A stretch of DNA of 55,912 nucleotides from Perkinsus marinus ATCC 50983 (lineage: Eukaryota; Perkinsozoa; Perkinsida; Perkinsidae). Under the pieces are notes generated by a model. That model was not told the origin of the DNA, ran no database searches, and saw only the letters and a program-made list of their open reading frames with translations. A program made the translations under genes and the position numbers. Shown here piece after piece: positions 1 to 52,060 of the stretch. The stretch is from assembly GCF_000006405.1 (NCBI RefSeq), contig NW_003203663.1, forward strand, positions 91,281-147,192, read 5' to 3'. Position 1 is the stretch's first letter. Each line of letters starts with the position of its first letter.

Positions 1-564
1 AGTTTTTATTTTCCTGAACCTCGGGCAGCCCGAGTCGGGCTTGTCCATTATCCAGGGAGCAAGTCAAGAATTTCAGTCGTTTGCTATACACTCCACGGCG
101 TTCAGTACGTACAACAGTACCTACTGTAGAATCAAGTTATAGAGAACAACTTGTAACAGTTGTAGCTCTGAGGATTTAGCATTACATTCGTTATAGGTAT
201 ATAACCCACCAGGGGACGATGAATTGACATGATATTGTACATTTCCGCTGCCTCCCAAAAAATATACTATTTTCAGTTTCACCACTCTTAGAAAGCGTTA
301 TTTTTTCACGCGGATAGTCGAACTCTCGCTAGGGAACGCGGAGACTGTCTCGGATGAGCCGAGTCGGCACTGTCATAACCGATGCCAATTTGGCATTGCC
401 AAATGGCCTTCCTAGATCAAAACACTCGTGCCACAGCCTAAGAAAGTCGAATCAAGGATTCTGGCTGGCGAACTGTTACACGATGAGCTTGCTTGAATGT
501 TCCCTGAACGATAGACGGAGTTCAACATCAAACCTCCCATGGGTGTAGCGAAACAAACGGCACG

Positions 565-1575
565 ATGATCAGAACCGATGAGGAGGAAGCCTACATCCTC
601 AGCTTCTCGCAACTCGATGTAGTACTTCACGATGAGTACCCAGGCACGCTCTGCCATCCTAGGCTAAATTTTACGAGTTTCGCTGATATACAGCCCCAGG
701 TCGATCGAGATAACATCAGCATTCACGTCGGAGCCTATGGTGTGTTACTCGCATTGCGAGTCTCGCAATACGTCTCTTGGTCGGCGCAGTTGACTTCACC
801 TCTAGAGACTCTAAGTATCAATGAGAAGAGGTCTAAGCGGGACCGGCAGGGCGGGGGTGGGATGCGCAACAGCGTTAAGTTCATTTGAGAGATATCCACG
901 TTCTGCTGTAGGCCAGCCACGAGATTGTATCGATCTCATATCTAACAACCAAATGTTTCTTCAGTAACCAACTCACAGGATTTCAGCGGGCAGGAGAAAC
1001 GCTTGAGCATTCATCATAGCCTGGATGCCTGCCTTGCAAATGGATACGGCCTGTTGCTGCATCGCTTCGTGTATGGTGACCTGTACAGGATTAGGCGGCT
1101 CTAATACAGCCCCGTTCACTTGGAATTTCCTATCAAATACGTTAACGATCACTTCCCAGTTCTATGTCGACCCGTACACTACCATTGTCAGTGAGGATGA
1201 TACCACCGAGATCGATAATGACGTCATTCGAATCGAGGTCTCGAGCAACTCCGGCGGTCTAGCCAGCAGCAGTGAATGCCTTGCCGCTAGCATATACCAT
1301 ACGTGAAAGGGAATCAGATACCCACCCGAGCAAGATGTTTCATACACACAAAACAACGCTCCATTATCACGACTCGAGGAATTGGCTCTTGTTTATACTT
1401 GGATCGTCAACTATACAGACGTTGAGGTCGGCTCCGATCTTCATGCCCTCCTTTCTAGTTACCTTCAATACTTCATCTGATCAAGTCACTGTAATACACA
1501 GCTGCAGACACAGATATGACCTCAGCGGTAGCTCCTGTGGCTTGATCGATATCCACCATGACGTCGAATGGTTCT
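565..1575 (-). pseudogene. Degenerate MCM helicase fragment (AAA+ core, possibly MCM6-like)
   Basis: Read on the minus strand, short segments in MCM order remain. A Walker A-like stretch lies near 1371-1437 (DDPSINKSQFL, where MCMs have GDPSTAKSQFL). A Walker B-like stretch lies near 1153-1213 (ILTDNGSVRVDIELGS, where MCMs have LADNGVCCIDEFDKM). An IHEAM segment lies near 977-1083 (VTIHEAMQQQAVSICKAGIQ), and an SRFDLF-like segment near 792-908 (SRLDLFSLI). The segments sit in different frames with stops between them. The Walker A glycine and the Walker B glutamate are changed, and the N-terminal OB domain is missing. MCM proteins form the replicative hexameric helicase; this copy cannot encode one. 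Some breaks could be introns, but the lost catalytic residues favour a pseudogene. Confidence 0.6.
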
Positions 1576-1739: not shown

Positions 1740-3086
1740 TCACTGAGACACAGCAGCAGCCATCAGAGCCGCTCCAACGCCCGAACCATCACTACTATGT
1801 ACTGTATGAATGAGAGATGCCATGACATCTCCAACGATCTTACTGAATGCCATAGAGAGGCGATCTGGATACTGATACCCCTTGAGATAGAGAGAGCCGT
1901 CGACTCCTATTGTCAAACACCGAGGCATCCCGTGGTCCACGCAGACCTCTCGCATATGTCTTTTATTTTCCCGCCCAATGCCGCATTTCTCAGCGACAGC
2001 TGCCAGACCAGCAGCGCAGAGATTAGCACTTCTTTCTACCACAGCATCACCAATGGTGCGGAAAACAACACGTACAACCTGATCGTCGCAGTTCAAGCCG
2101 TCATCCTCTAGGGCAGCACATACGAATTTGGCATCAAGAGGCCCTTTAGTGAGAAAATCGGGTAACTGCTTGTTCGCTGCGTAGCCCTCAAGAACATCCA
2201 GACACGCCAGCCGAGTAAGCTCACCGAGATACATGCCGGAAATCGTCTTCTCATACAGCTGTTTGCCAGGATTTGGCGACGCCTCATCAACAGCTCGATC
2301 ATATTCATTGAGGACCTTCTGAACGTTCCTGAAGTTGTATCCACCCCATTCAGTGTTGACGATCAAGTTACCAAGAGTAGGGTCAGAGTAAGCAGCATTG
2401 GTACCGGTACCAATGATCATACCAATCTTACACGTGCCGCAACCCTCGAACTGATAAGCGCAAGTCATCAATGTACCGACGGTATCGTTACACAGCGCCG
2501 CCACGCTAATAGGGACGCCCCGTTTCTCCATCGCTCTCGTTAGTAGTGCTGCCGGGTCCTCTCCAACCACTCCTGCTGTCGAGAAGCCTTTCGTCCACTC
2601 AACCAAAGTGCCGCGGTTGATAGTCTCCTGGCTCATAGGGAAGGAAAAGGTAAAGCCAGCAGGAATCACACCTTCATCCTCAAACTTGTCCGTCATCTCC
2701 TTCGCTGTGAGCGCTATGAAGTCGAACAAATCATCAGAGGTGCTACTCATAACGTCCTTCGGTATAGCCTTGCGATGTTCCGTCACTTCCGGCTTCTCTC
2801 CATGGCCGAGCACCACTCGGAGCACCCTAAGGTACGTCCCACCCAGATCGAGAGCATAGAAAACACCCTTCTCATATCCACGTGGGAGAACGTCTATGTG
2901 CGTGTTCAACATCTTGATGCTAGAGGCGCTAGAGGGAGCTCCCAATCCCTTACCGACTTCCCAACCAGCTCTCATTTCACGCAAAAAATCATCTTTCACC
3001 TCAACCAGCGTCGGTGCCGATACATCGAACTTGTCCAGAACTTCATCAAGCCGATTGGACACTTCGGCATCCAGGATGTCGGTCAT
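1740..3086 (-). CDS. Hexokinase, copy 1 (448 aa)
   Basis: ATP-dependent hexose phosphorylation, the entry step of glycolysis, presumably cytosolic. Family motifs in order: phosphate-1 loop ALDLGGTYLRV, sugar-binding FTFSFPMSQ and WTKGFSTAGVVGEDP, catalytic-Asp segment CNDTVGTLM, phosphate-2 loop IIGTGTNAAYSDP, EWGGYNF, and the C-terminal adenosine region SSDGSGVGAALMAA. The frame is open 59 codons further upstream, but the start at 3086 is chosen because MTDILDAEVSNRL aligns with the start region of the neighbouring copy. Single exon, about 450 residues as in one-domain hexokinases. It lies downstream of and in the same direction as copy 2 and is about two thirds identical by eye, so it is a tandem duplicate. 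The Asn of the GGTN signature is Tyr here. Function as a hexokinase is near certain; full activity is not. Confidence 0.93.
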   Translation of the reverse strand: MTDILDAEVSNRLDEVLDKFDVSAPTLVEVKDDFLREMRAGWEVGKGLGAPSSASSIKMLNTHIDVLPRGYEKGVFYALDLGGTYLRVLRVVLGHGEKPEVTEHRKAIPKDVMSSTSDDLFDFIALTAKEMTDKFEDEGVIPAGFTFSFPMSQETINRGTLVEWTKGFSTAGVVGEDPAALLTRAMEKRGVPISVAALCNDTVGTLMTCAYQFEGCGTCKIGMIIGTGTNAAYSDPTLGNLIVNTEWGGYNFRNVQKVLNEYDRAVDEASPNPGKQLYEKTISGMYLGELTRLACLDVLEGYAANKQLPDFLTKGPLDAKFVCAALEDDGLNCDDQVVRVVFRTIGDAVVERSANLCAAGLAAVAEKCGIGRENKRHMREVCVDHGMPRCLTIGVDGSLYLKGYQYPDRLSMAFSKIVGDVMASLIHTVHSSDGSGVGAALMAAAVSQ

Positions 3087-3927
3087 TAACCGTAAACAGA
3101 GTAAGGCTAGCCAACTACAGGAGATCAGATCGACGTCAGATCGACACAACGTCAAGGAGTATTTGACTCCCTTGTCTGTCGCGGCTATACGACTCAGGCG
3201 AAGCGCTGGGAGACGAAAGCGCACAAAAAAACCAACCGGAAATACAGTACGATAACTAAGCAATCAACTACCAAGATTATCTACAGGTGTCCTCAAGCGT
3301 AGCACCCTAGACCCATCTAAGCTTCGCAATCACATTATAGAACGCCTACTGGCTGAACTACGCCAGCTGACAGTCATACTCACCATAAGTACTAAAGCAA
3401 CGCAAGATCACGCGATGCCGCAGAGGTTATCATATCACAAACAAGCCACCTTATCACCAATTTGAAGAAAACCATTAACACAACTTCCCAACACAACTCC
3501 TAGGAATCCGTTGTAAGATAATGATGAATGTACGGTCTCTAATGACATCATTCACGCTAGACGATAACTAACGATGAAGTGACGTCTTGAGAAGGATCGC
3601 AGAAGCAGTAGTGGTAGTAGCAGTGGCAATACTTACACGACTCTTCACTATAAACAAACAAGAATATCAGATGCCCAATCACCAGGAGAAGGGCCGATGT
3701 TATGTAAGTTATTAACAGTAGTGGAAGCAGCATCGGTATCTCTCAAAGGAACGAACTAAGTGCAGTAGGCAGGTAACTTAACCATCGCCATAAAAGCTTA
3801 TTAGATAAGGCACACATCCGACAATAACCATGATGGTAGAACTACCGAGTATAAGTAGATAAATTACAACAAGGGTACAACAGCATTAACTCATTGACAG
3901 TAATCGACCACTCGCAACAACAACAAC
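3087..3927. other. Intergenic spacer between the two hexokinase genes
   Basis: About 840 bases with only short open frames. It must hold the 5' leader of copy 1 and the 3' end of copy 2. A possible acceptor (ttggctag) lies about 20 bases upstream of the copy 1 start on the minus strand. No further structure was recognised. Confidence 0.5.
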
Positions 3928-5271
3928 TTATCGAGAGACGGCAGCGGCAACAAGGGCAGCCCCAACACCAGAGCCATCGCTACTGTGAACAGTGTGAACT
4001 AAAGAAGCGGCTGATTTACCAATGATCATAGCAAAGGCATCATCCAAACGCTGAGGATAACGATAACCCTTCTGATAGAGGGAACCATCAACACCAATAG
4101 TCAAAGACCGAGGCATGCCATGAACAATGCAAACCTCACGCATGTGACGCTTCTCATTGTCCATGATATCGCACTTCTGAGCAAGAGCCGAAAGCGCAGA
4201 CGCACAAAGGCGAGCACTACGCTCAAGAACAGCTTCACCAATGCCACGGAAAACAGTCATGATAACCTCATCATCGCAACCGAGGTTATCGCCTTCCAAA
4301 GCGGCGCACACGTACTTCGTATCGAGGCCCGACTCGTTGAGGAAGTCAGGCAAATGAGCTGAATAGCCCTTGAGGACATCACGGGTGGCCAAACGGGTCA
4401 ACTCGCCCAAGTACATACCGGAGATCGTCTTCTCGAAATACTGCCTACCCTTGTTGGGGGAAGCCCTGTCTACATCTTCATCATAGCAGTTGAGAACTGA
4501 AGGAACCTCCTTGAAGTTGTATCCACCCCACTCACAGTTAATGACCAGATTGCCAAGAGTAGGGTCCGAGTAAGCAGCATTGGTACCGGTACCAATGATC
4601 ATACCAACTCTGCAAGTACCACAACCTTCGAACTCGTAGGAGCAAGTCATGAGGGTGCCGACAGTATCGTTACACAGAGCAGCAACATAAATCGGAACAC
4701 CCTGCTCCTTGAAGGCCTTATTGAGCAACTCAGCAGGGTCCTCTCCAACAACACCAGTAGCGGAGAAACCCTTAGTCCACTCGATCACCTTGCCATGGTT
4801 GATAGCAGACTGGCTCATGGGGAAAGAAAAAGTGAAACCAGCAGGCATAAGATCATCATCATGGAATTTGTCAGTGAGCTCCTTGGCGGTAGCGGCAATA
4901 AAACCAAAGAGATCCTCAGCAGTACCACCCATAACATCATGAGGGATGGGCTTCCTGTTCTCGGCAATCTCAGGTTGCTTCTCACTGCTAAGCACAACAC
5001 GGAGAACTCGTAGATTGGTTCCACCAAGATCAAGGGCGTAGTAGATGCCAGCCTCATGACCACGAGGGAGCACATTAATGTGAGAGGTAAGCATCTTGAC
5101 GCTAGATGCCTCAGGAGGGGCACCAGCACCCTGACCGGCCTCCCAACCGAGCTTCATCTCGTCCAGGAAGTCGTCCTTAACCTTAATCATCACATCCTTA
5201 GAAACCTCGAATTTACCAACGGCTTCCGTCAAACGATCGGAAATGTCGCTGGGAAGCGTGGTAGAAACCAT
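3928..5271 (-). CDS. Hexokinase, copy 2 (447 aa)
   Basis: Second hexokinase with all signature loops intact: ALDLGGTNLRVLRV (canonical Asn present), FTFSFPMSQ, WTKGFSATGVVGEDP, CNDTVGTLM with the catalytic Asp, IIGTGTNAAYSDP, EWGGYNF and SSDGSGVGAALVAA. The frame continues 17 codons upstream of 5271, but that start is favoured: a pyrimidine-rich stretch ending in ccttccag sits four bases before the ATG on the minus strand, as expected for a trans- or cis-splice acceptor, and MVSTTLPSDISDRL aligns with the start of copy 1. Single exon. It is upstream of copy 1 in the same orientation with about 840 bp between, so both may be transcribed from the same side. It is the more conserved of the pair and probably the main enzyme. 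Confidence 0.95.
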   Translation of the reverse strand: MVSTTLPSDISDRLTEAVGKFEVSKDVMIKVKDDFLDEMKLGWEAGQGAGAPPEASSVKMLTSHINVLPRGHEAGIYYALDLGGTNLRVLRVVLSSEKQPEIAENRKPIPHDVMGGTAEDLFGFIAATAKELTDKFHDDDLMPAGFTFSFPMSQSAINHGKVIEWTKGFSATGVVGEDPAELLNKAFKEQGVPIYVAALCNDTVGTLMTCSYEFEGCGTCRVGMIIGTGTNAAYSDPTLGNLVINCEWGGYNFKEVPSVLNCYDEDVDRASPNKGRQYFEKTISGMYLGELTRLATRDVLKGYSAHLPDFLNESGLDTKYVCAALEGDNLGCDDEVIMTVFRGIGEAVLERSARLCASALSALAQKCDIMDNEKRHMREVCIVHGMPRSLTIGVDGSLYQKGYRYPQRLDDAFAMIIGKSAASLVHTVHSSDGSGVGAALVAAAVSR

Positions 5272-6197
5272 TGTTCTGGAAGGTTTGTAAAAACTGCGAT
5301 CCAGTTTTGAAAGAGCACTCACAGCTAAATTCCAATTTCACAGCGGAGCGAAGGCCGAAAGATAAATTGCATTAGAAAAGCCACCACCGGTAATCGTACC
5401 TCGGACCTATCTCATTGCACGCGTAAAACATCATCGTATTCATCAATTTCCACAGCTTCCACAGCGTTGCTTAGCCGAGCAGTCCCGAGGGATGAATCTG
5501 GCTAGCCTAGATCCTCGACTCTAGCACAATGAGTATCTTCAACATGAATAGAATCGAATCAATCCGACTCTGTTGATGCCCGTTCGTGCTGTCCTTAGCC
5601 AGTCGTCTTCCGCCACGAGTTCTACGGGCAACACAATTGGTTGAAAAAATCCTCCAACAACTTCTACAGACTTCAACCACTGGGATGGAACAAACATTTA
5701 GTTTAAAACTAGTACCAAATGAGCTCTTCAATTAACAAAGACATGTAAGGTGTCGGAAAGGTTCTTGGAGTTTTGGAAAGATAATATCTCGACTCGATGG
5801 CAATCATCTATCTAGCGGGCCATGTTCTCTTGCATGCTAACCCGGACTGTGACACGCAGACCGCGATGTACGATGGAGAATCCAACAATTGGTAACTAGC
5901 AAGGATCTCAACTTGGAAGCTGTTTCGTTCGATGCGTAGTGAACATTTAGCTATGAACATCCCTCATTAACGTCACAATATCGCGTCACAATTTGTAGTC
6001 GCATGGTATATCGTATTATAGATTCAATGTCTTATACAGGGATGTCACCCTTCCAGGTGCATTGAGTAGCCATTTTCTCATTCGGGTGCATTGAGTAGCC
6101 ATTTTCTCATTTGTAGCCTACTACAACGCAAATCTATTCTGGACAATTTCTGGTAAGGTTTGTTGTCAAGTATATATCTAATGGTCACTAATGAACA
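5272..6197. other. Intergenic region containing a spliced-leader-like direct repeat
   Basis: About 0.9 kb between the hexokinase 2 start and the stop of the next minus-strand gene. Only short open frames are present, none with recognisable product. The one notable item is the 29-base-period duplication at 6057-6112, listed separately. Confidence 0.5.
6057..6112 (+). repeat. Tandem pair of spliced-leader-like motifs
   Basis: A 26-27-base segment is repeated once with a 29-base period. Each copy contains GTAGCCATTTT followed by CTCA. The dinoflagellate/Perkinsus spliced leader contains GTAGCCATTTT followed by GGCTCAAG, so each copy matches 11 bases and then lacks two. Relic leaders are known in genomic copies of reverse-transcribed dinoflagellate mRNAs. 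No plus-strand gene follows here, so it could be chance. Confidence 0.3.
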
Positions 6198-24758: not shown

Positions 24759-24779
24759 CACTCAAGCTGAGTGACTCAA
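24759..24779. repeat. 14-nt fold-back duplication (one mismatch)
   Basis: x=C, W=ACTCAA, n=G, W'=CTGAGT (perfect would be TTGAGT), x'=G, W=ACTCAA. Same spacing as the other members: the second W starts exactly 14 bases after the first. Confidence 0.7.
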
Positions 24780-24865
24780 GCTGTTGATCCACAACAACTT
24801 TAATGCATGATCCAATCTGGCTGGATATAAGTTATATTATTAACCTGTTTCAAATACCGTACTTT

Positions 24866-24910
24866 ATGTTGCCCTCAGCGAGTGATAATATCACTCGCTG
24901 AGGGCAACAT
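24866..24910. repeat. 45-base perfect palindrome, 22-base arms, one-base axis
   Basis: Left arm 24866-24887, axis A at 24888, right arm 24889-24910, no mismatch. It ends 15 bases before the left LTR. Its sequence is unrelated to the other long palindrome at 32097, which has the same 22-1-22 dimensions once a later insertion is set aside. Confidence 0.95.
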
Positions 24911-24925
24911 GAGGTACCTACGAGG

Positions 24926-25113
24926 TGTTGCTTCTGGTCCCTTTCATAGTCAACCCAACAGTTAGTGATGGTGCTTGCGGTAGTGGAGATAACAAAGAGA
25001 ATCAAAGGTTGATACACCAATCTATATTGTACTTGCGTGCTACAGCTAATAGAAAATGCTGAAGAATCACAAGGAAACAAGTTGGTACCATACCTAATCC
25101 GCGTACAGCAACA
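24926..25113 (-). repeat. 3' LTR of the retrotransposon
   Basis: 188 bp, TGTTGC to GCAACA, identical by eye to the copy at 30263-30450. On the element's strand it is the downstream LTR. Confidence 0.93.
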
Positions 25114-25330
25114 CTCCGGCCAGGGCCAGAATTGGAGCTGATCGCTGACATAGACTTTACCGCACGATTTGGGATTCTACTGAACAACAGACGGATAATA
25201 ACAGAAAGAATTCAACACCTGACGATGTTGAGACAATTAACAATTCTATCGAAGCTCAATACTAGTCTAATCTCAGCACCTCACCTCAAAGAAGCATACT
25301 GCAGCCGTCGCAAGCTCAACCCACTCATCT

Positions 25331-27763
25331 TCACTGCCAATCCGTGCTAGTCGCTGTGGCTAGAGGAATACTCGCCTCATCTGGTAGTAGTCGTAAATTG
25401 CCGACGAAATGGCGTCCCAGCTTCTTCTGGTCTCTGTCCTCGAGTTCGACCAAATACTTGGTAACAACACCGCATACTCGGAAAGGACCAGTCATCATAG
25501 GATCTAACTTACGCCTCTGGTGACGCACGAGCATCACGTGTTGTCCCACGCGCAACTCGGGAACTCGACGTCCGGGCTGGCGTGCCAGTGACGCCTCGCT
25601 CTTATTCCTGAGAACGTAGTTGTGGATAGTATAAATATCGAAAGTAGATGCATAGACTCGTTGCATATTCTTAACCATAGACCGAACAACATCACTCTGA
25701 AGAGCTGCTGGAAATCCTTGAAGAACATTAGACCACTTAGTAGCTTGTTCCGACAATCGACGTGGTTGTAGCGAGGTAGGAGCAGTAGCACCGTGATGGA
25801 AAAAGAGATCAGCAGGGGCAACGGGACAATTCACATCACTCGGAACATTGTTATAAGCCCACACTGCACATGGAAGCAGGCGATACCAATCACGGAGCTG
25901 TAACCCCGAATCTTCGATGATAGTGCGCATGATGTTGTTCAACAAACGATGGGGTATTTCTTGCCAAGAATTCAGCGGAGACGAATGAGCAGGTAAGAAT
26001 TTCCAATTCCATTGGAAAAGCTTCTGAGCTGCCAATCCAACTTTCGATAGGAATCTACCATCGCGATCACTTATTATTAAAGATGGGAATCCAACGGAGA
26101 AGAAGCAGTCCACCAGCGTCTCCAGAGTAGAATCAGCATCATGGCAGAACAATGGTCTTGCGATTACAAACTTCGACGCCGAATCGACCAAGACCAGCGC
26201 GTACTCAACCTTGTGAGGTGGGTCATCGGCCAGAGAAGGAGAAACAAAGGGACCTATAAGGTCCACTCCGATCATCTCCATCGGTATAGGACTCTTAGAG
26301 GGGACTGTACCCAATCCTCCGGCCCGCAACACGCAAGAGCCCTTGAACTTCACGCAGGTGGCACAGTTTTTTGCATAACGTCGAGCATCTCCCGATAATC
26401 CAGGCCAGTAAAAGTCTCTGCTCAGCAACCCTGGCAACTTCGATGTCCCAATGTGACCATAGATGGTATGGATGCGATCGACAAGGCTTCTCCTGCAACT
26501 CTGAGGTACAAAGACTTGGACATGGTCGGCAATAACTGGATGTTTCTTAACCAATACATCGCCGTAATGGTCGTTGATAACATGATACATGTCCTTGTGA
26601 CGATCGTCGTTGCGCTTGATGGCTAACTTGATGTGGGTTACCTCGTCGTCACTCTCTTGAGCTCGCCGTATCCTTTGTAAGACATCGGCGATTTCTGTAG
26701 CAGAGCATTGGTTCTTGAGATGGGACAAGAGAGGAGATGCATTCCCAATAGTCGTAAGGGCCAGTGGAATCTGGAGGGGATCAACACTTCCTTCCTTGAT
26801 CGCCGTGAGAGTCGTCCTTAAACACTTGTAGTCCACTGCATCACTTGAGCCCCTTGATAAGCAGTCGGCTGGGTTCAGAGGTCCCGGTATAAACCGCAGA
26901 GTAAGGTGCAAGTCGTTGGCCAACTCAATGATAGAGGCAATACACGTTTTTTCCCATGTTGGTAGATCCGGTGAAGGACTGCCATCTCGTAGAGCCTTCC
27001 TGACACGTTGGAAGTTGGCAGAATTGTCAGTATAGACATACAACTCTCGAGTGGCTTCCTGTTTGGAGAGATTAGGAAGTAGTTGCTGCTTGACGAGGCT
27101 AAGACCATATCTAAGGGATAACAGCTCCTTGCGCACGATGGTCCATGGGAGATGTGGTAGCTCATGTAGCATGGCTTTAGCATACACCCTGTTCATGTTA
27201 TTGTCGAGAACAGTACACCCATGAGCGTAGCTTGAGCTATCAACGAAGACGTGTAGAACTTGATGGTCAACCATTCGAGGGACAGGCTTCGGGCACTTGA
27301 GAGCTTGGTAGACTTTGTAGAATTCACGATACAAAGGGCCTGGTAAGAGTTGATCAAATGTGATGCCACATCGATGAGCATAGCGAAGTACAAGTTTGCC
27401 ACGGAGCACGGTTTCAGCGACGGTACCAAGTGGGTCATAAATGCTGGCAAGCCACGATAGCGCTTCTCGAAGGGTTAGTGGAGAGACGGACTGGAAGACA
27501 TTTGAGCTGAGATTAGGGACATCACTCGACTCTAAGATGATGGGAGGATCAACATACTGAAGGACCGGTGACGGTAAGTCACGTATAGGCATGACTTGTA
27601 AACAATCAGTAGGACCATCCCACAGCATTCCAAAAGCTTTAACACGCCCAGTGTGATCCTCATGACACTCCTTAGCCGGACCGAGCCAAAACCCGTGCGA
27701 GCCGAAGACCGATCTAGTTTCTACAACGACGGTGTCTCTGGTAGAAGAATCATTAGTAATGAT
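25331..27763 (-). CDS. Retrotransposon pol, 3' part: end of RT, RNase H, integrase
   Basis: The frame is open from 27763 to the stop at 25331. It starts just after the RT catalytic YVDD of the previous frame and continues with the RT thumb/connection (GFWLGPAKECHEDHTGRVKA), then LSWLASIYDPLG. RNase H follows with Asp in HVFVDSSS, Glu in RKELLSLRYG, Asp in YVYTDNSANF and NPADCLSRG. The integrase zinc site is HHCC-type (IYGHIG, CATCVKF), and the core has Asp in GVDLIGP, Asp in SDRDGRF and Glu in NSWQEIPHRLL. It is in the -1 frame relative to the upstream pol frame. The break coincides with the fold-back at 27750-27770. The element-encoded enzymes would copy and insert the element. Confidence 0.88.
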   Translation of the reverse strand: MITNDSSTRDTVVVETRSVFGSHGFWLGPAKECHEDHTGRVKAFGMLWDGPTDCLQVMPIRDLPSPVLQYVDPPIILESSDVPNLSSNVFQSVSPLTLREALSWLASIYDPLGTVAETVLRGKLVLRYAHRCGITFDQLLPGPLYREFYKVYQALKCPKPVPRMVDHQVLHVFVDSSSYAHGCTVLDNNMNRVYAKAMLHELPHLPWTIVRKELLSLRYGLSLVKQQLLPNLSKQEATRELYVYTDNSANFQRVRKALRDGSPSPDLPTWEKTCIASIIELANDLHLTLRFIPGPLNPADCLSRGSSDAVDYKCLRTTLTAIKEGSVDPLQIPLALTTIGNASPLLSHLKNQCSATEIADVLQRIRRAQESDDEVTHIKLAIKRNDDRHKDMYHVINDHYGDVLVKKHPVIADHVQVFVPQSCRRSLVDRIHTIYGHIGTSKLPGLLSRDFYWPGLSGDARRYAKNCATCVKFKGSCVLRAGGLGTVPSKSPIPMEMIGVDLIGPFVSPSLADDPPHKVEYALVLVDSASKFVIARPLFCHDADSTLETLVDCFFSVGFPSLIISDRDGRFLSKVGLAAQKLFQWNWKFLPAHSSPLNSWQEIPHRLLNNIMRTIIEDSGLQLRDWYRLLPCAVWAYNNVPSDVNCPVAPADLFFHHGATAPTSLQPRRLSEQATKWSNVLQGFPAALQSDVVRSMVKNMQRVYASTFDIYTIHNYVLRNKSEASLARQPGRRVPELRVGQHVMLVRHQRRKLDPMMTGPFRVCGVVTKYLVELEDRDQKKLGRHFVGNLRLLPDEASIPLATATSTDWQ

Positions 27764-29445
27764 TCATTACTAGCAACTACTAGATCATCGACATAGTCAA
27801 CGATAGAGTAGTCATGGGCAACCGACGTACGACGATGTACTTCAGATACCATCTCATGAGTGCTATAACGTAGTATAGCGGGCGATGGTGGGAGACCCAT
27901 GACTACACGATTAAACTGATAATATTCTCCTTCGAAGTAGAAGGATACCCACGCCTTCGAAGCTTCAGAGAGCTGTATCATAAGGAATGCCCTATGAGAA
28001 TCGAGTAAGGTTACATGCTTATAACATCTCATAGCGAGTAAACTGGGCGTACAAGAAATAGGTCCAACATCGCCCTTCGACAACAAGTTCTGAAATATGC
28101 GACCATCAAATACTGGCCGACACGGCGTAGTGAGACTATCCTTGAGTACAGCAAAGTGTGGCAACAACAACTTCACGCCTGAGACGTCAGTCTTACGAAT
28201 TATATCTTTAGCGAGATAGTCATCAATAAGCTTCTTATAGCAATCATAACAATTATTGCGTTTTAACGATCTAATGAGCTTCTCATCACGTTTGACAACG
28301 CTCGGTACATCACTCATACGAAAAGTCTCTGGGCGCTTATTGGTGAGCCACGGAAGATTGAACGTATAACGAGTCACTCTACTCTCACTACTAGATTCGC
28401 TATTCAAAGCCTGAGGTGAACAATCTACAGTATAACCAGTGAAACACTTTTTAATAGAATCATCATCATCATGGTCTTCACTTGGCTGTAGACTGCATAG
28501 GAAGATAGGGCCTTCATCCGAGTCCTCATCGTCAATGGAGTTGTCTTCATTCTCGGCATCGCTTGGCTCTTGGACAATGTGGTTGACTTGGTCTTGATTG
28601 CCCTTGGCCGGTTGATCGTGTGATGATGCACCACACCTGAGAACAGTAGTAGTGGGCGATACACATATGGCCATGTCCATTAGCCGAAGGCCGCTTAGTC
28701 CGATAATCATCTCGGACGTTAACGTCGGTATTTCGAGTGCACTTAGGCAAACGTGACGACCCTTTGGTAGCTCTATGTAGAAGGTAATCTCTTTGATAGC
28801 CGAGACCTCGTGACCATCCGCTAGGAGTATGCGACGATTCACCTGTCGTGACCCAGCAACGGCTCCGGCTTTCTCCAATGACTTGGTCAAACTTTGACGT
28901 ATATATACTCTAGCAGCACCGGTGTCGATCATAGCCGTACATTTCAGGGGTTTCGCCGCCACGAAACTTATTTCGGTGTAGAGGGGGTCAGTGCCAGTGT
29001 CCATCTCGGAGAGCATGCTAAGAGGGTGGACCTTGGGATCTTGTTTATCCTCTTGTCGAATATTGCTTGAGGCCGTCGTCATAGGCTCTTGAGCTGAATC
29101 ACTGTGTGATCTCGAGAGATCAGTGGCTAGAGTCGGTTGAGACTTATCGACAGCTTTAACTCCCCTGCAAATATGCGCCACATGACCAGATCCCTTGCAT
29201 CGTCGACATTGAAGATTCTGGACACCAACTTTCTGGGACAGACGGCAAGAGGAAGTCTCATGGGAACCTCCACAGGACAGACATCTGCTAGATAACGAAG
29301 CTGGTTCAGTGGCTTCGCAAGCGCTGCTGATATGACCAATACGGAAGCATCGGCAACAGCGGTTGTTATCTCTCAGGACCTTGTAGTTAACACGACGTGG
29401 TGTAGATTCAGCAGCAGCATTGGTGTTATTGTTGAGGTCCTCAAC
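27721..29445 (-). CDS. Retrotransposon pol, 5' part: zinc knuckles, protease, RT
   Basis: Read on minus. Zinc knuckles come first (CRCFRIGHISSACE, CLSCGGSHETSSC, CRRCKGSGHVAHIC), followed by a retropepsin-type aspartic protease (AMIDTGAARVYI, later SEMIIGLSGLRLMD). The RT then has LPHFAVLKDSL, PCRPVFDGR, the first Asp region HVTLLDSHRAFLMIQL, VVMGLPPSP and the catalytic YVDD in SIVDYVDDLVVAS. The frame ends at 27721, a few codons after YVDD, because of a shift. At its 5' end it is -1 relative to gag, and the switch falls at the fold-back at 29432-29452. No X XXY YYZ slippery heptamer was found in either overlap. Confidence 0.85.
   Translation of the reverse strand, partial: VEDLNNNTNAAAESTPRRVNYKVLRDNNRCCRCFRIGHISSACEATEPASLSSRCLSCGGSHETSSCRLSQKVGVQNLQCRRCKGSGHVAHICRGVKAVDKSQPTLATDLSRSHSDSAQEPMTTASSNIRQEDKQDPKVHPLSMLSEMDTGTDPLYTEISFVAAKPLKCTAMIDTGAARVYIRQSLTKSLEKAGAVAGSRQVNRRILLADGHEVSAIKEITFYIELPKGRHVCLSALEIPTLTSEMIIGLSGLRLMDMAICVSPTTTVLRCGASSHDQPAKGNQDQVNHIVQEPSDAENEDNSIDDEDSDEGPIFLCSLQPSEDHDDDDSIKKCFTGYTVDCSPQALNSESSSESRVTRYTFNLPWLTNKRPETFRMSDVPSVVKRDEKLIRSLKRNNCYDCYKKLIDDYLAKDIIRKTDVSGVKLLLPHFAVLKDSLTTPCRPVFDGRIFQNLLSKGDVGPISCTPSLLAMRCYKHVTLLDSHRAFLMIQLSEASKAWVSFYFEGEYYQFNRVVMGLPPSPAILRYSTHEMVSEVHRRTSVAHDYSIVDYVDDLVVASNESLLMILLPETPSL
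27750..27770. repeat. 14-nt fold-back duplication inside pol
   Basis: Plus strand: TCATTA (27750-27755), G, TAATGA, T, TCATTA (27764-27769), C. All 13 constrained positions match. In the element's orientation this is x-W-n-W'-x'-W. It lies at the frame break just after the RT catalytic site; 14 bases is -1 modulo 3, and so is the break. Confidence 0.95.
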
Positions 29446-30284
29446 TTGAGGACACCGGTTCTTGGTTGACTCTGGTCAGGGGCATTGATACCAGCCAGAG
29501 TCTCAGTGCTGGACTTGAACATATTCTGAGCTGTGGTAGCTCGAGCTCGATTTCTGAGTAATCTCACCATCTCTCTCGGTTCTCTTTCCTCGGCAACCCA
29601 CTCTGCTACCCAGTCCTTGTAAGGCGATGTCGTAGTCAGTAGCAGCTTCTCTACTAGATCTTGATCCGAGATATGGTGCTTGTTGTGCTTCAACAGTACC
29701 CGTTGCCTCTCTAATTCCTTGAGGTACACCTCGAAGGACTGAGTGTGGGATTGCTGGGTCTGCTGCCACTTGGCGAGGAGGAGAGTTCGCATGGAAGGAT
29801 CATAGTAGTTCACGTACAGTTCAGTTAGGATATCATTGTAGGCATGCTCGAACCATTCAAGAGTACGTTGAACTTGAAGAAGGGACTCAGCCGTGCTGAC
29901 GAAGATCTCTTCGACCACCTCAGTAGTTAACGAGTTCACAAGGAGATAGTAGGAGTGTGGGAAGCCTGTGACCCAACCATTCAATCTCAGCCTGACATTG
30001 AGCTGGGAGAGGAAGCCGTCCAGACCACGTGGGTCTTCTGTTCCCCTGAACTTGCTCATGAGGTCGGCTTCCTTCCTCGCATCTTTACGGGCGTCCTCGT
30101 AGTCTTTGGGCCTCAAAGGGGAAGGGTTGGTCTCGATAGAAGTCTGCTGTACCACTGGGGGCCCTTGTGGAGGGTCTTGCCCATCCTCCTCAATTGGCGG
30201 GGGAGTCGCTGAACTCGAAGTTGCAGTCTTCTCCTTATGGGGGGAGTTCTTTCTCGGATGATTGTTGCTTCTGGTCCCTTTCAT
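29373..30284 (-). CDS. Retrotransposon gag (capsid part)
   Basis: Open from the ATG at 30284 to a stop at 29373. The N-terminal 60 residues are Pro/Lys-rich and disordered. A helical capsid-like part follows (DGFLSQLNVRLRLNGWVTGF, QSFEVYLKELERQRVLLKHN, DQDLVEKLLLTTTSPYKDW). The zinc knuckles expected at the end of gag are in the -1 frame and are listed with pol. The start codon lies inside the 5' LTR, 21 bases before its inner edge, so the first codons come from LTR sequence; the next in-frame upstream options are not ATG. The last 20 or so codons of this frame, after the fold-back, are probably not the original sequence. Confidence 0.8.
   Translation of the reverse strand: MKGTRSNNHPRKNSPHKEKTATSSSATPPPIEEDGQDPPQGPPVVQQTSIETNPSPLRPKDYEDARKDARKEADLMSKFRGTEDPRGLDGFLSQLNVRLRLNGWVTGFPHSYYLLVNSLTTEVVEEIFVSTAESLLQVQRTLEWFEHAYNDILTELYVNYYDPSMRTLLLAKWQQTQQSHTQSFEVYLKELERQRVLLKHNKHHISDQDLVEKLLLTTTSPYKDWVAEWVAEEREPREMVRLLRNRARATTAQNMFKSSTETLAGINAPDQSQPRTGVLKLRTSTITPMLLLNLHHVVLTTRS
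29432..29452. repeat. 14-nt fold-back duplication at the gag/pol junction
   Basis: Plus strand: TTGAGG (29432-29437), T, CCTCAA, C, TTGAGG (29446-29451), A. All constrained positions match. It sits where the frame of the capsid part gives way to the -1 frame that carries the zinc knuckles and protease. Confidence 0.95.
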
Positions 30285-30450
30285 AGTCAACCCAACAGTT
30301 AGTGATGGTGCTTGCGGTAGTGGAGATAACAAAGAGAATCAAAGGTTGATACACCAATCTATATTGTACTTGCGTGCTACAGCTAATAGAAAATGCTGAA
30401 GAATCACAAGGAAACAAGTTGGTACCATACCTAATCCGCGTACAGCAACA
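30263..30450 (-). repeat. 5' LTR of the retrotransposon
   Basis: 188 bp, identical by eye to 24926-25113. It is upstream on the element's strand and contains the gag ATG at 30284. A frame on the same strand reads through the whole LTR in both copies, but has no recognisable product. Confidence 0.93.
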
Positions 30451-30577
30451 GAGGTACAACATGAGGCATATCACTGTGGTATGCCATAAAAACGCTGACC
30501 ATGTGCGAAGTATCTACAACTAATGACTGCGGGTAGAGTCAGTCAGTAGCTGATTGCCACGAAAATACCATCCCACC

Positions 30578-31225
30578 TTACCTTTCAGAGTCATCGAAGC
30601 CACCAAGCTCGGCCATTGATCTGTGCGTTGCACGCTGCCAAGTGTGCAGGCGATAATCGGTTCGGGTTACCCCGTTCGGCGCAGGATCCAGAGCGTGCTC
30701 CGCAAGTTCCCGCTTGTAGATATTCTCAGAAGTCGCCCAATAGTGTTGTATATGTGACAACTGTAAGGCGCTGCCCTCACTATAGTCACATCAGCGAGCT
30801 CATCCATTCCCGGTATCATCACCCCCACTTGGCTGTGACAAGGGATATTATCCACAACCACTGCAACTTTAATGAATTCCGGCAACTCCATAACTTTTTG
30901 GACCACCCGTAGCGAATACACTAACCCTTCTATGAAGACCTCTTCCTTGAAACTGATAGTATACGAGTCCATGGCTTTCGCCGTATACTGATATGCAGTG
31001 CGTATCGGATTCTCGTGTGTTGGGTAATATATTCATCGCTCTCGACCCACTTTGCTTTCCACATACGTATCCGGGATACGCTCGGAGATTTTGTAGGACC
31101 TACAAAATATACCGAGATTTGTTTCATCTTGGTATAGGATAGTACAGTCATCAGCTGATAGCTGTAGCAGTCGCTCTGCATAATGTTCGCGTTTATTGCG
31201 ACTAACAGCTGAGTTCACTCCTTGT
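30578..31225 (-). pseudogene. Broken Tc1/mariner-type (IS630 superfamily) transposase
   Basis: On minus, about 31.2 to 30.58 kb, fragments of a DDE transposase: TILYQDETNLGIFCRSYKIS (first catalytic Asp in DETN), then KVAVVVDNIPCHSQV (second Asp), then VTIVRAAPYSCH followed, after a frame change, by YWATSENIYKRELAEHALDP. Tc1/mariner proteins have D-E-T-N, V-D-N and PYS-x-NPIE in this order. At least two frame changes and a stop interrupt it, and the N-terminal DNA-binding part is missing. A perfect ten-base-arm palindrome with a one-base axis (31088-31108) lies inside the DETN-KIS segment. Terminal inverted repeats were not found. The LTR element sits about 130 bp away. Confidence 0.7.
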
Positions 31226-31628
31226 GACTGTGCTGTAACAGCCTCATTTTACCTGAACTACATTCAGGAGAACACAGAGGATGAGAGATTTCTACTTGCT
31301 TAAAGGTGAAGAGCTTCATTACGAGATGTCTGGAAAGTGTGCTGATTCTGAGGTCCACTCTAAATTTTTCGTGTATCGATTCTTCCATCTGTCCAAGGGT
31401 TAAATGAGCAAGAGCAAGGCAGAACTGGGCTCGTCAATTCTCAATATGAAGACATCTCCCTCTCCCTTGCGTTTTTAGGGGCTTCATCCCGCGCAGCTCG
31501 GGCCACACTAGCTTCCTGAGCCGGCTTGCCGCCGTCGCGAGTTTTGCGTCGTTGATTTCGGCTACATCTTTCAAATCAAAGCCCTTGTCTTTGGCTCACG
31601 GACCTCACGGTGAAATTTGTTGTACTTA

Positions 31629-31649
31629 CCACGCAGTGCGTGGCACGCA
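31629..31649. repeat. 14-nt fold-back duplication
   Basis: x=C, W=CACGCA (31630-31635), n=G, W'=TGCGTG, x'=G, W=CACGCA (31644-31649). Exact. Confidence 0.95.
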
Positions 31650-31861
31650 AACACCCTGTCTTTACACTACATCGAGTGCTGTCTCCGGTGAAGACAGCGT
31701 GAAGACCCTTCACATACTTCACGCAGTGTGTTTTCATAGTTCGAGTCCAGTAAAGGTAAGGAGATCACCCTTACCATCATATGCTCCAACTAACTCAATC
31801 ATTCGAAGATCAATCTTCTCGAGGAGCGCGTCAATATCAGCCTCCGAGGCTCTATCAACGC

Positions 31862-31880
31862 TGGCTCCAAGTTGGAGCCA
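31862..31880. repeat. Palindrome, 9-base arms, one-base axis
   Basis: Perfect arms 31862-31870 and 31872-31880 around G at 31871. No trailing copy of W, so it is not a 14-nt fold-back. Confidence 0.9.
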
Positions 31881-32096
31881 CACACACGGAAGGAGATATA
31901 CAAAACAAGATGAGCTCAACGGCAGTAGGCAGTACTCAGCAGGATGTCAGAAAGTTCTTAGACCAATTCAACAACTCGATCGCGGATATCAAGTATTATG
32001 CAGATTTAAAGAAACTGGCTGGCGAGCTAGAATATCAGGGTCTAGACGTCGAGTTGATACAGAGACGCTTCCTGGACTCAGGCCTCGCCAACCAGA

Positions 32097-32155
32097 GTCT
32101 TCATAACAGTGGTTGGAGGCTCCAACCACTGTTTAACAGTGACTGTTATGAAGAC
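32097..32155. repeat. 45-base palindrome interrupted by a 14-nt fold-back
   Basis: Left arm 32097-32118, axis G at 32119, right arm 32120-32133 plus 32148-32155. The 14 bases 32134-32147 interrupt the right arm. They form the fold-back c-ACTGTT-t-AACAGT-g-ACTGTT (32127-32147). Ignoring them leaves perfect 22-base arms. Confidence 0.93.
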
Positions 32156-32751
32156 GGCCGCTGGCCTCTCATGTTCGCTGTCCCTTTTCATGATCAGTTC
32201 TCTGAGCTATTCAGGCGGACGCTCTATGTTGGGAGGATATAATGCCATAATGCCATAGTGCATGTGCAAGTCGGCGTTTTGGAGCAAGCTTATAAGTCAG
32301 GCTGATGGCGCTGTAACAGACACTCTATGTCAAATGGTGGTGTTACTGAGTGTGTACTTCTTCACCAAAGGATTATTTGGCATTTTAAGGCCCTCAGTGA
32401 GTACTCTCTGCGAGATCTAAGGTGATGTCTTGCTTGGTAGCTACAGTATCCATGGCAGTGAACATGTCCTTGCTATGTATAGTAACATAACGGATAATAA
32501 TTACTATGAGCTGCCTTCTCTTGGCACAATCCTTCATTTCTATATGCTCGATGTGTTGCGTTGTTGTAAGGAAATTGTATCCTACAATATCTGCGCCGGA
32601 GAGAGTCTGTTGATTGTTCTGCCGACGAGATAGTGTTTGCTCATAACTCACCAATAGTATTATACTGTCACTGTGACACATGACAGTGTCACATTAGGCC
32701 ATAAGCGTTTGCTCGGAGTTGCTGAGAGCACCAGCCAGCAATACTACACGG

Positions 32752-32800
32752 ATACTTAGTAAGTATTACCTACCATCAAGTTGAGGACCTCAACTTAAGG
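32752..32800. repeat. Two adjacent 14-nt fold-backs, one mismatch each
   Basis: First (32752-32772): x=A, W=TACTTA, n=G, W'=TAAGTA, x'=T, last W=TACCTA. Second (32780-32800): x=G, W=TTGAGG, n=A, W'=CCTCAA, x'=C, last W=TTAAGG. Confidence 0.85.
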
Positions 32801-33067
32801 GCTTCAAGTCATTTGTGGTCCTATTTCCGGCGAATTGACTAGGTGATTGCGTTTAAAAGATGGAAGCTCGCAATCAGTTGAGCCAGAGTGGGTTTCAGCA
32901 GGAAGAAAATGAAAGTACTAGTGAAATTTATCGATCCTTCTCCACTCGCTAATGTGTTGCTAATACCACAGAGGAATGGTACCGCGAATGGACTTAAAGT
33001 GCAACGCAGATATCTGCTAGGCGATAGCACGATGGTATGCGGGCGCATACTATGCGCTTCAACACTC

Positions 33068-33088
33068 GATGGGTTACCCATCATGGGT
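33068..33088. repeat. 14-nt fold-back duplication
   Basis: x=G, W=ATGGGT, n=T, W'=ACCCAT, x'=C, W=ATGGGT. Exact. A related 15-base-period version (TATGCG-GG-CGCATA-C-TATGCG) lies at 33036-33056. Confidence 0.95.
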
Positions 33089-33437
33089 ATATAGTGTATG
33101 TCTGAACCTATCGATATTTTCATTGGGATATGCTCTTTGGGAGGGTAGAAGGCAAGCTATCCTTGACGCTGTCAAGCTGACAGCGTGAAACGTTGTATGA
33201 TAATATTAGAGTTCTCAACATCCCGAATATTCGCTGTCCAATCCTATAGGGTTAGTGGAACCCAACAGAGAGGATTGAGGGAATAAAAAAGGCTTAATTA
33301 AGCTTGATCAGCCTCATCATGAGGTGACCGTTTCATCATGCGGTGTGGCGGGCGCAGTGGCCTCAAAGATACAGAAATAGTGTTGAAGCCTTGTAATGCG
33401 TTCGACTAGGAGAAATATATACAGTGTGCTGGACACG

Positions 33438-33458
33438 CCCATAACTTATGGGCCATAA
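33438..33458. repeat. 14-nt fold-back duplication
   Basis: x=C, W=CCATAA, n=C, W'=TTATGG, x'=G, W=CCATAA. Exact. Confidence 0.95.
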
Positions 33459-33615
33459 GTCTATATTACAATGTTATGCTTGGAAATGCTGGAGTGCTGG
33501 AAAGCTAGGATCCACCTATGAGGTGGTAATGGACTATCGGCTATACTGTGGGGTATTGCGAATTAACGTTCGTAATGTTCAACATCATTGGAACTACAAT
33601 GAGTTCTGAACTGCA

Positions 33616-33648
33616 AGAAGTGTTTGTCTGAATCAGACAAACACTTCT
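33616..33648. repeat. 33-base perfect palindrome, 16-base arms, one-base axis
   Basis: Arms 33616-33631 and 33633-33648 around A at 33632, no mismatch. Confidence 0.95.
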
Positions 33649-34161: not shown

Positions 34162-34287
34162 TAACTGCGGCGCAGTTATAAAAACCCGCTACCCCTGTGG
34201 GTTCCAAGTTGGAACCCACAATGGCCGTAGGAATTCCGAAATGCTTCTCCATTGTTGGAACTTCCAACAATGTAGAAGCATTTCGGA
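34162..34287. repeat. Cluster of three palindromes with one-base axes
   Basis: 34162-34178 (8-base arms, axis G), 34196-34220 (12-base arms, axis G) and 34235-34287 (26-base arms with one mismatch, axis C at 34261). Confidence 0.93.
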
Positions 34288-48759: not shown

Positions 48760-49264
48760 GATGATGCTGTTTATAACGCGGAGGGACAGGGCGGGAGGAG
48801 GAATAGGGACGTGGAGCAATCACCAGCTTTGGCGCAAACAAACACTACGACCAATCCCGGTACACTTGCATGTCACCAAAATACACCTCTAACAACAGAA
48901 CAGAGATATTCACAGCTGCCGCAGCTGAGCTACGCTTCGATAGTTCCTATTTCTAGTGGAAATGCCATTGTCTTCGCAGACCCACCACCTGGCAGGTTGC
49001 TTGCTACTACATTGACACGCCTCGGTCCGTACAGCCGTAGGAGTTGACAAAGGCCGCTCACAACACTCACAACCACATCTCAGAAACCGCAGAAACGCAT
49101 TGGCAACGAAGCGAAGGACCTTTTTTTCAATAGAGCATCATCGACCCGCTCAAGCGTCATACTTCTTAGTATATCTATAATACATAGATTGATAAAGAAC
49201 AAACTTAATCCAAGTCAGCCACATTGGTAGCACCTGAAACTACCTCTAACCAACTACTACCACC
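48760..49264. other. Region upstream of CDC14
   Basis: A plus frame at 48811-49047 lacks an ATG start and has no known motif. Nothing else was recognised. It lies between two genes transcribed leftwards, so it should hold the CDC14 5' leader and the 3' end of the next gene. Confidence 0.4.
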
Positions 49265-51432: not shown

Positions 51433-52060
51433 TGTAAGAGAGGAACCACAAACACTGAGGTGGGAGGAGATCCAGAGAGTTGGAAATTCGATGCAACCGC
51501 TTTAACAATCTTGAAGACAGCAGCGCTCCGCTCACAGTGCAGTCCAGCTCTCTACCTATGTAGCTCGGTAGGCAACAACTAACGTGGTCAATGAGGTTTC
51601 GAAGTCCGTCGAAAATATCAGGACAAAGATAAGGCATCTACCCGTTGACACTACATGAACACTACTAGGGATGTGAATGAAATATAACAATCATGCACGG
51701 CAGTTCCGTGACGGCACCATCTCATATGATCCTACACGCCTATCGGCCGGGCCTTACAGGGCTGTGAGCGTTTCAGTGACTTTTCTGCATTACGTGAAGA
51801 CCCATCACGTAATGCAGTTCAGTCGTGATTAGCCTCAAATTTTCCGGGAAAGTTCCACATACCACAAGCTGCCCAAACAAGTCGACGGGAGTGTAACATC
51901 CCACAGCGCATCCAGAGGGTATCTCAAGGACATTCGCGGCTAAGATGCGCAATTCTTCACTTAGCGCGCGCCCGAGTAATCGATAAAAACACGACGCAGC
52001 AATGTTCCATCGTCGACCCAAGCATTTCCATGGCAGTAGTTCTCTTCCGTATTGCGTAGC
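51433..52060. other. Intergenic region between divergent genes
   Basis: About 630 bases that should contain promoters for the genes at 51432 (minus) and 52061 (plus). It holds an inverted repeat with 13-base arms and a seven-base spacer near 51784-51816. The minus frames here have no recognised product. Confidence 0.4.

What the first reader, a model, noticed from the sequence alone, without database searches (positions are those of the whole stretch)
24759..33458. A family of exact 14-nt fold-back duplications with a fixed architecture x-W-n-W'-x'-W
At least six sites fit exactly (27750-27770, 29432-29452, 31629-31649, 32127-32147, 33068-33088, 33438-33458) and three more with one mismatch (24759, 32752, 32780). 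Each has a 6-nt word W, one free base n, the reverse complement of W, the complement of the base before W, then W again, so the second W always starts 14 bases after the first. The words differ almost everywhere (TAATGA, CACGCA, ACTGTT, ATGGGT, CCATAA, ACTCAA), so it is the geometry that is shared, not one repeated sequence. Thirteen positions are constrained; with even base use the expected number in this window on both strands is about 0.002 exact. It looks like the product of one defined process: fold-back copying with a one-base turn, an insertion that duplicates 6 bp, or an excision scar. I know of no described element with this form.
Basis: partly seen in the sequence, partly recalled or inferred. 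Interest (0 to 1): 0.92.

Follow-up and report, generated by a model that had tools for sequence, protein, structure and literature searches.

The report
Scars of departed hAT jumping genes
The repeated 14-base fold-back insertions are best explained as healed wounds left where hAT-type jumping genes inserted with an 8-base target copy and later cut themselves out, and they are unusually uniform in this Perkinsus-like protist, so they may show how its cells open and rejoin hairpin-ended DNA.

Summary
The exact form is K[1-7] + reverse complement of K + K[2-8], with K an 8-mer (22 nt, a 14-nt gain). The window has 8 exact copies; 169 kb of readable sequence from the same genome has 34 exact and 77 with up to 2 mismatches, against means of 0 and 0.6 in Markov controls. 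K=7 gives 1 exact and K=9-13 none. Paralogues show 14-nt gains at a single K. An 8-bp unit with one-base hairpin turns is the signature of hAT excision: target duplication, a cut one base outside the element, hairpin-capped flanks. Five further sites keep two opened hairpins apart, both loops fitting one 8-mer. The genome, from a relative of Perkinsus, holds hAT transposase domains, and three hAT elements are flanked by 8-bp duplications. The repair step is inferred: hairpins opened about 8 nt or more from the tip, tails annealed through the inverted 8-mers, gaps filled. This is an unusually uniform variant of a known scar type. In the window, two scars coincide with the two frame changes of a Pao retrotransposon.

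The parts
20..41 (.). 14-nt excision scar, exact, K=CTCGGGCT
382..403 (.). 14-nt excision scar, exact, K=ATGCCAAA
747..768 (.). 14-nt excision scar, exact, K=ACTCGCAA
   Evidence: absent from the list
24866..24910 (.). long single palindrome, 22-nt arms, 1-nt loop: possibly one retained hairpin
   Evidence: assignment inferred
27749..27770 (.). 14-nt excision scar, exact, K=ATCATTAC; lies where the Pao pol frame changes
29431..29452 (.). 14-nt excision scar, exact, K=GTTGAGGA; lies where the Pao gag and pol frames change
31629..31650 (.).
32097..32155 (.). 1-nt-loop palindrome whose right arm carries the scar at 32127-32148; the left arm (32097-32118) keeps the sequence without the 14 nt
32127..32148 (.). 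14-nt excision scar, exact, K=CACTGTTA
32752..32773 (.). 14-nt scar with one mismatch
32780..32801 (.). degraded 14-nt scar (two mismatches in the 22-nt form)
33068..33089 (.). 14-nt excision scar, exact, K=GATGGGTA
33438..33459 (.). 14-nt excision scar, exact, K=CCCATAAG
33616..33648 (.). long single palindrome, 16-nt arms, 1-nt loop: possibly one retained hairpin
   Evidence: assignment inferred
34196..34272 (.). two-hairpin scar: 1-nt-loop palindromes centred at 34208 and 34261, both loops fitting K=GTTCCAAC; the right palindrome extends to 26-nt arms with one mismatch
48913..48934 (.). 14-nt scar with one mismatch
51696..51717 (.). degraded 14-nt scar (two mismatches in the 22-nt form)
25333..27763 (-). 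open frame of the Pao retrotransposon (Peptidase_A17 and Integrase_H2C2 over their cut-offs; rve below), opening inside scar 27749
27723..29475 (-). open frame of the Pao retrotransposon (RVT_1), its ends overlapping scars 29431 and 27749
29375..30338 (-). open frame at gag position of the Pao element (no Pfam match), ending just past scar 29431

Best explanation
Each site is the repaired donor site of a hAT-superfamily DNA transposon that inserted and later left. Insertion duplicated an 8-bp target K = x-W-n' on both sides of the element. On excision the transposase cut one base outside the element on each side and joined the flank's free end to the opposite strand, leaving hairpin ends with one-base turns: xW-n-W'x' on the left and nW'-x-Wn' on the right. 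The host then opened each hairpin at about 8 nt or more from its tip on the 5'-ending strand, giving 3' tails nW'x' and xWn'. These tails are exact complements because both come from K. They annealed, overhanging flaps were trimmed and gaps filled, giving xW + nW'x' + Wn', a net gain of 14 nt. When the tails did not anneal, the two opened hairpins were joined with filler (five sites) or one was trimmed away (long single palindromes). Shown by sequence: the geometry, K=8, one-base turns, 14-nt gains at single K sites, hAT elements with 8-bp duplications in the genome. Inferred: that hAT elements stood at these sites, where the hairpins were nicked, and the annealing step.
For: Exact sites peak at K=8 alone. 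One search scanned duplications of 5 to 12 nt for pairs of one-base-loop palindromes consistent with one K: 40 at 8 nt (34 scars at spacing 7, 5 with filler, 1 cross-pair of tandem copies), 7 at 5 nt, 1 at 7 nt, 0 at 6 and 9-12 nt. The five with filler lie in L007, L017, L022, L024 and window 34196. Empty sites: one search found 17 distinct gaps between paralogues (alignments of at least 75% identity and 100 nt); the two of 14 nt are both scars (L023, L025). A third (L017 versus L012, about 66-72% identical) differs by 14 nt over a scar, split by the aligner. Window 32127 has an unscarred palindrome arm. hAT dimerisation domain at 14 places, all over the cut-off; three hAT elements bounded by 8-bp duplications and terminal inverted repeats, two of them with transposase frames confirmed. 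Target preference: T at position 2 or A at position 7 in 29 of 66 positions, 16.5 if even. Published hAT footprints are palindromes centred on the complement of the base next to the element, with arms to 20 nt and frequent microhomology in yeast (PMC5873905, passages). Mre11, Artemis/Pso2-like and Pol-theta-like matches are present.
Against: No locus was caught in all three states (empty, occupied, scarred). Short footprints with 1-3 nt palindromes, common for hAT in other hosts, are at most weakly in excess (11 seen against about 5 expected for the forms summed), so the spectrum differs from published ones; footprints with deletions cannot be recognised from one genome, so 'dominant' means among recognisable forms. 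At L017:194/228 the exact arms are only 6 and 7 nt, just short of the 8 nt that the annealing step needs. An Artemis/Pso2-like gene is present, so far-from-tip opening is not explained by its loss. Inexact K=7 forms also exceed the control (36 against 5.75 with <=2 mismatches). Comparison of L026:6124 with L029 and L030 gives 17 nt, not 14, and window 382 and 747 against L031 were inconclusive. Two overlapping palindromes in L028 have 3-nt loops and do not fit. Activity of the hAT elements was not tested.
Confidence: 0.88

Rival explanations
1. Replication template switching: the polymerase turns back on the opposite strand for 8 nt and returns, giving the inverted copy between two partial copies (the four-point model).
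For: The product can be written in that notation, with the two switch points at each end one base apart (inference). Such events are described in great apes (PMC7954356, passages).
Against: Nothing in that model as I understand it fixes the inverted piece at 8 nt. Lengths 7 and 9-13 give 1 and 0 exact sites against 34. It does not predict the five sites where two separate palindromes share one K with filler between.
Confidence: 0.04
2. Excision scars of another 8-bp-duplication superfamily that also leaves hairpin flanks, such as Merlin or a Mutator-like element.
For: Merlin-type DDE_Tnp_IS1595 domains occur at 4 places in this genome, 3 over the cut-off. Merlin is reported in Perkinsus marinus, and 8- or 9-bp duplications are given for the superfamily (PMC8101967, passages).
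Against: The one-base offset is the cleavage described for hAT. Three of the four elements found with 8-bp duplications enclose a hAT domain. No ends or duplications could be defined for P. marinus Merlin. The mosquito Mutator-like Muta1 excises mostly precisely in yeast when the duplication is present (PMC5225508, passages). Mutator-like domains were not searched for in this genome.
Confidence: 0.05
3. Assembly or library artefacts (fold-back chimaeras).
For: Inverted fold-backs are known artefacts of some amplification methods (recalled, no call).
Against: Artefacts would not be expected to have a fixed 8-nt unit, to cluster (25 of 34 exact sites in 48.7 kb of hAT neighbourhoods, 9 in 120.5 kb of contig C3, from the table) or to show decay (43 of 77 hits carry 1-2 mismatches, a few of them shifted hits on exact sites).
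Confidence: 0.02
4. Chance palindromes or DNA composition.
For: None.
Against: 34 exact against a mean of 0 in 20 order-2 Markov replicates.
Confidence: 0.001

Closest known systems
hAT (Ac/Ds, Tam3, Hermes, TcBuster) excision footprints with P-nucleotides
   Same: Palindromes centred on the complement of the base next to the element, hairpin intermediates, use of microhomology (PMC5873905 and PMC1978519 passages; TcBuster PMC3499496 passages). The 8-bp duplication of hAT is recalled and fits.
   Different: Published footprints are heterogeneous and often keep few hairpin bases (in Candida at most 3, 28 types in 128 clones; in yeast arms to 20 nt; all). Here, among recognisable forms, one product with the whole inverted 8-mer dominates: 34 exact sites against 5 two-hairpin sites.
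V(D)J coding joints with P-nucleotides
   Same: Hairpin-capped ends, off-centre opening, palindromic additions (recalled; likened in PMC1978519).
   Different: No target duplication (recalled), so the two tails are not complementary and no fixed product results.
Short template-switch mutations (four-point model)
   Same: Local inverted copy beside direct copies (PMC7954356, passages).
   Different: No link to transposons and no fixed length in that model; here the length is fixed at 8.
Introner elements of Amoebophrya
   Same: Alveolate insertions with inverted repeats and direct repeats (PMC7789003, passages).
   Different: Those are introns with 8-20-nt inverted repeats at their ends and 3-5-nt direct repeats; the 14-nt scars have no body, and 14 is not a multiple of three.

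Membership tests
hAT excision footprint | 8-bp target duplication as the unit | tested here: met
   Exact sites peak at K=8; three hAT elements with 8-bp duplications
hAT excision footprint | Palindromes centred on the complement of the base next to the element (one-base hairpin turn) | tested here: met
   Required by the scan, which gives 40 hits at length 8 and 0 to 7 at other lengths; 1-nt loops in excess without that requirement
hAT excision footprint | Site was once a single K, then gained bases | tested here: met
   L023, L025; L017 versus L012; palindrome arm at window 32097-32118. L026:6124 gives 17 nt; window 382 and 747 inconclusive
hAT excision footprint | hAT transposase in the genome | tested here: met
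   PF05699 at 14 places, all over the cut-off; frames of 842, 760 and 703 aa matched as whole proteins
hAT excision footprint | An occupied allele with a hAT element at the same site | not tested
   No other strain of this species was at hand
hAT excision footprint | Typical short footprints (1-3 nt palindromes) present too | tested here: inconclusive
   11 seen against about 5 expected for forms with 1 or more bases kept on each side and fewer than 8 in all (summed)
Template-switch mutation | Variable length of the inverted piece | tested here: not met
   34 exact at 8 nt, 1 at 7, 0 at 9-13
Merlin excision scar | Merlin element with 8-bp duplication and ends beginning GG | tested here: inconclusive
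   Domain at 4 places; none of the 4 hits of the end-plus-duplication search begins with GG, but that search covered contig C3 and hAT neighbourhoods only

The most novel reading that the evidence does not exclude
In this Perkinsus relative, hairpin ends left by hAT transposons are opened well away from the tip by one dedicated 5'-strand incision and healed almost only by annealing the two inverted copies of the target duplication. This gives one stereotyped +14 scar written thousands of times across the genome: a countable, datable record of excision and of hairpin repair, perhaps driven by a domesticated or developmentally timed hAT transposase.
Probability: 0.25. Interest if true: 0.72.

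Novelty: new variant of a known kind. Interest (0 to 1): 0.52.

Why it matters
Transposon excisions usually leave traces too varied to recognise without the donor sequence. Here the scar can be recognised from one genome alone, so excisions could be counted, dated by decay and mapped. The fixed product constrains how hairpin-ended DNA is opened and rejoined in an alveolate lineage where, as far as I recall, this repair has not been studied. The scars also matter for annotation: 14 is not a multiple of three, so a scar in a reading frame shifts it.

Tried and rejected
Rejected: a 6-bp duplication around a free base (the last base and the loop bases show that K is 8). Rejected: template switching as the main process (fixed length, two-hairpin sites). 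Rejected: 'lack of end joining explains it', because Ku-like (weak), Artemis/Pso2-like, Mre11 and Pol-theta-like matches all occur. Considered and not adopted: Merlin, Mutator-like elements, introners.

Led nowhere: the DNA search for paralogues of the region in the finding listed 20 matches, none reaching one of its sites; window 1-1000 led to L031 and L032, where the scar comparisons were not decisive; the L022 paralogues cover none of its scars; L033 was fetched and not used; a sequence search of one transposase against solved structures found nothing. The first run of the shuffle control stopped with a script error after printing the real counts and was redone as Markov controls. Ten paper searches (listings only) showed no title or abstract start that I recognised as describing the fixed 14-nt form. 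Yu et al. 2004 is not held; Lazarow 2012 and Huefner 2011 were seen only as cited in PMC5873905. Of seven papers I saw passages found by term, none in full.
Full report
WHAT IS THERE. The full form is one base longer than stated: an 8-mer K appears as its first seven bases, then its whole reverse complement, then its last seven bases. In the window this occurs 8 times exactly and 3 times with one mismatch; the same form with units of 6, 7 or 9-15 gives no exact site. Over the non-duplicate sequence then held (196,106 nt, 169,183 readable) there are 34 exact, 57 with up to one and 77 with up to two mismatches for K=8; 1, 4 and 36 for K=7; none for K=9-13. Some inexact hits are shifted readings of one site. 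Twenty order-2 Markov replicates average 0, 0 and 0.6 for K=8, and 0, 0.3 and 5.75 for K=7, so inexact K=7 forms are also above control; I did not find out why. The 34 include two tandem copies of one site in L024; 33 different K words occur.

WHERE. The window is part of contig C3 of a 54.46 Mb, 347-contig genome. Its hexokinase is 68% identical to those of Perkinsus marinus and P. olseni, the two best of the 120 matches listed, so the organism is taken to be a Perkinsus relative. Sites cluster: 9 of 34 exact sites in 120.5 kb of readable C3, 25 of 34 in 48.7 kb around hAT domains (summed from the table). The second set was chosen for hAT domains, so the contrast shows association with transposon-rich DNA, not a random sample. 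If C3 were typical, about 4,000 exact scars would exist genome-wide; that is an extrapolation from one contig.

GAINS. Between paralogous copies L023 and L025 (about 90% identical) two 14-nt gaps are exactly two scars, one in each copy, the other copy having a single K; the distinct gaps in all qualifying alignments were nine of 1 nt, one of 2, two of 3, one of 11, two of 14, one of 20 and one of 43. L017 against L012 gives a third 14-nt difference over a scar, at about 66-72% identity and split by the aligner. In the window, the scar at 32127 lies in the right arm of a palindrome whose left arm has the sequence without it. Less clean: L026:6124 differs from two paralogues by 17 nt, and the scars at 382 and 747 could not be compared clearly with L031.

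WHY hAT EXCISION. An element with an 8-bp target duplication, cut one base outside its ends and leaving hairpin flanks, gives left and right ends xW-n-W'x' and nW'-x-Wn'. Both loop bases are then complements of the outer bases of K, which is what is seen. The strongest test is the set of sites where the two opened hairpins were not annealed: a palindrome with loop n, filler, then a palindrome with loop x', both fitting one K. Scanning duplication lengths 5-12 gave 40 pairs at 8 (34 scars, 5 with filler, 1 cross-pair of tandem copies), 7 at 5, 1 at 7 and none at 6 or 9-12. Exact arms at the five filler sites are 6-18 nt. Single palindromes with one-base loops and arms up to 22 nt also occur and would fit ends where the other side was trimmed. 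The genome carries hAT dimerisation domains at 14 places. A search for duplications next to terminal inverted repeats found 16, 4, 2, 0 and 4 cases for 4, 5, 6, 7 and 8 bp and 0 for 9-12 bp; three of the four 8-bp cases enclose a hAT domain, and the transposase frames of two of these three match the Pfam hAT model as whole proteins. The K words prefer T at position 2 or A at position 7 (29 of 66 positions, 16.5 if even), which resembles the hAT target preference as I recall it.

HOW THE 14 NT ARISE (INFERRED). If the hairpins are opened 8 nt or more from the tip on the 5'-ending strand, the 3' tails contain nW'x' and xWn', which pair over all 8 bases. Annealing, flap trimming and filling give exactly the observed product whatever the precise nick. 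Joining of complementary partial tails adding up to 8 would give the same sequence and cannot be told apart. Forms keeping 1 or more bases on each side but fewer than 8 in all number 11 against about 5 expected (summed), so tip opening, common elsewhere, has left little recognisable trace here; deletion-type footprints cannot be recognised from one genome. In yeast hAT footprints reach 20-nt arms and mostly use microhomology, in Candida at most 3 nt (PMC5873905, passages). Genes able to serve have matches: Mre11, Artemis/Pso2-like, a family A polymerase exon whose best solved match is DNA polymerase theta, and a weak Ku match. None of these roles was tested.

EFFECT IN THE WINDOW. The Pao retrotransposon at about 25.3-30.3 kb on the minus strand is open in three successive frames: 30338-29375, 29475-27723 and 27763-25333. 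The two changes of frame fall at the scars 29431 and 27749, and by the coordinates each change has the direction that a 14-nt gain gives. The scars therefore probably broke a frame that was once continuous.

JUDGEMENT. What remains unusual is that one recognisable product dominates, that it can be read without knowing the donor, and that it is frequent.

Noticed in passing
L028:4029-4108: Two overlapping palindromes with 22- and 18-nt arms and 3-nt loops, unlike the one-base-loop scars.
   Followed up: partly
window 24866-24910: Perfect 22-nt-arm palindrome with a one-base loop next to the Pao element.
   Followed up: partly
window 24921-25113 and 30275-30450: The same stretch stands in direct orientation at both ends of the Pao element and recurs elsewhere in the genome at 79-94% identity over parts of it: probably its long terminal repeats.
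   Followed up: no
L018, L019, L020: Stretches identical over about 2,398 nt on three contigs (C79, C157, C333), with the same three scars in each: recent duplication or assembly redundancy.
   Followed up: no
G000:C60:621343-621723: Merlin-type transposase domain in a 353-aa open frame, as reported for Perkinsus marinus.
   Followed up: no
window 1740-5322: Two neighbouring hexokinase-like genes in the same orientation (the first matched by Pfam; the second judged by likeness of its translation).
   Followed up: partly
all held sequence: Inexact K=7 forms of the same geometry exceed the Markov control (36 against 5.75 with up to two mismatches).
   Followed up: no
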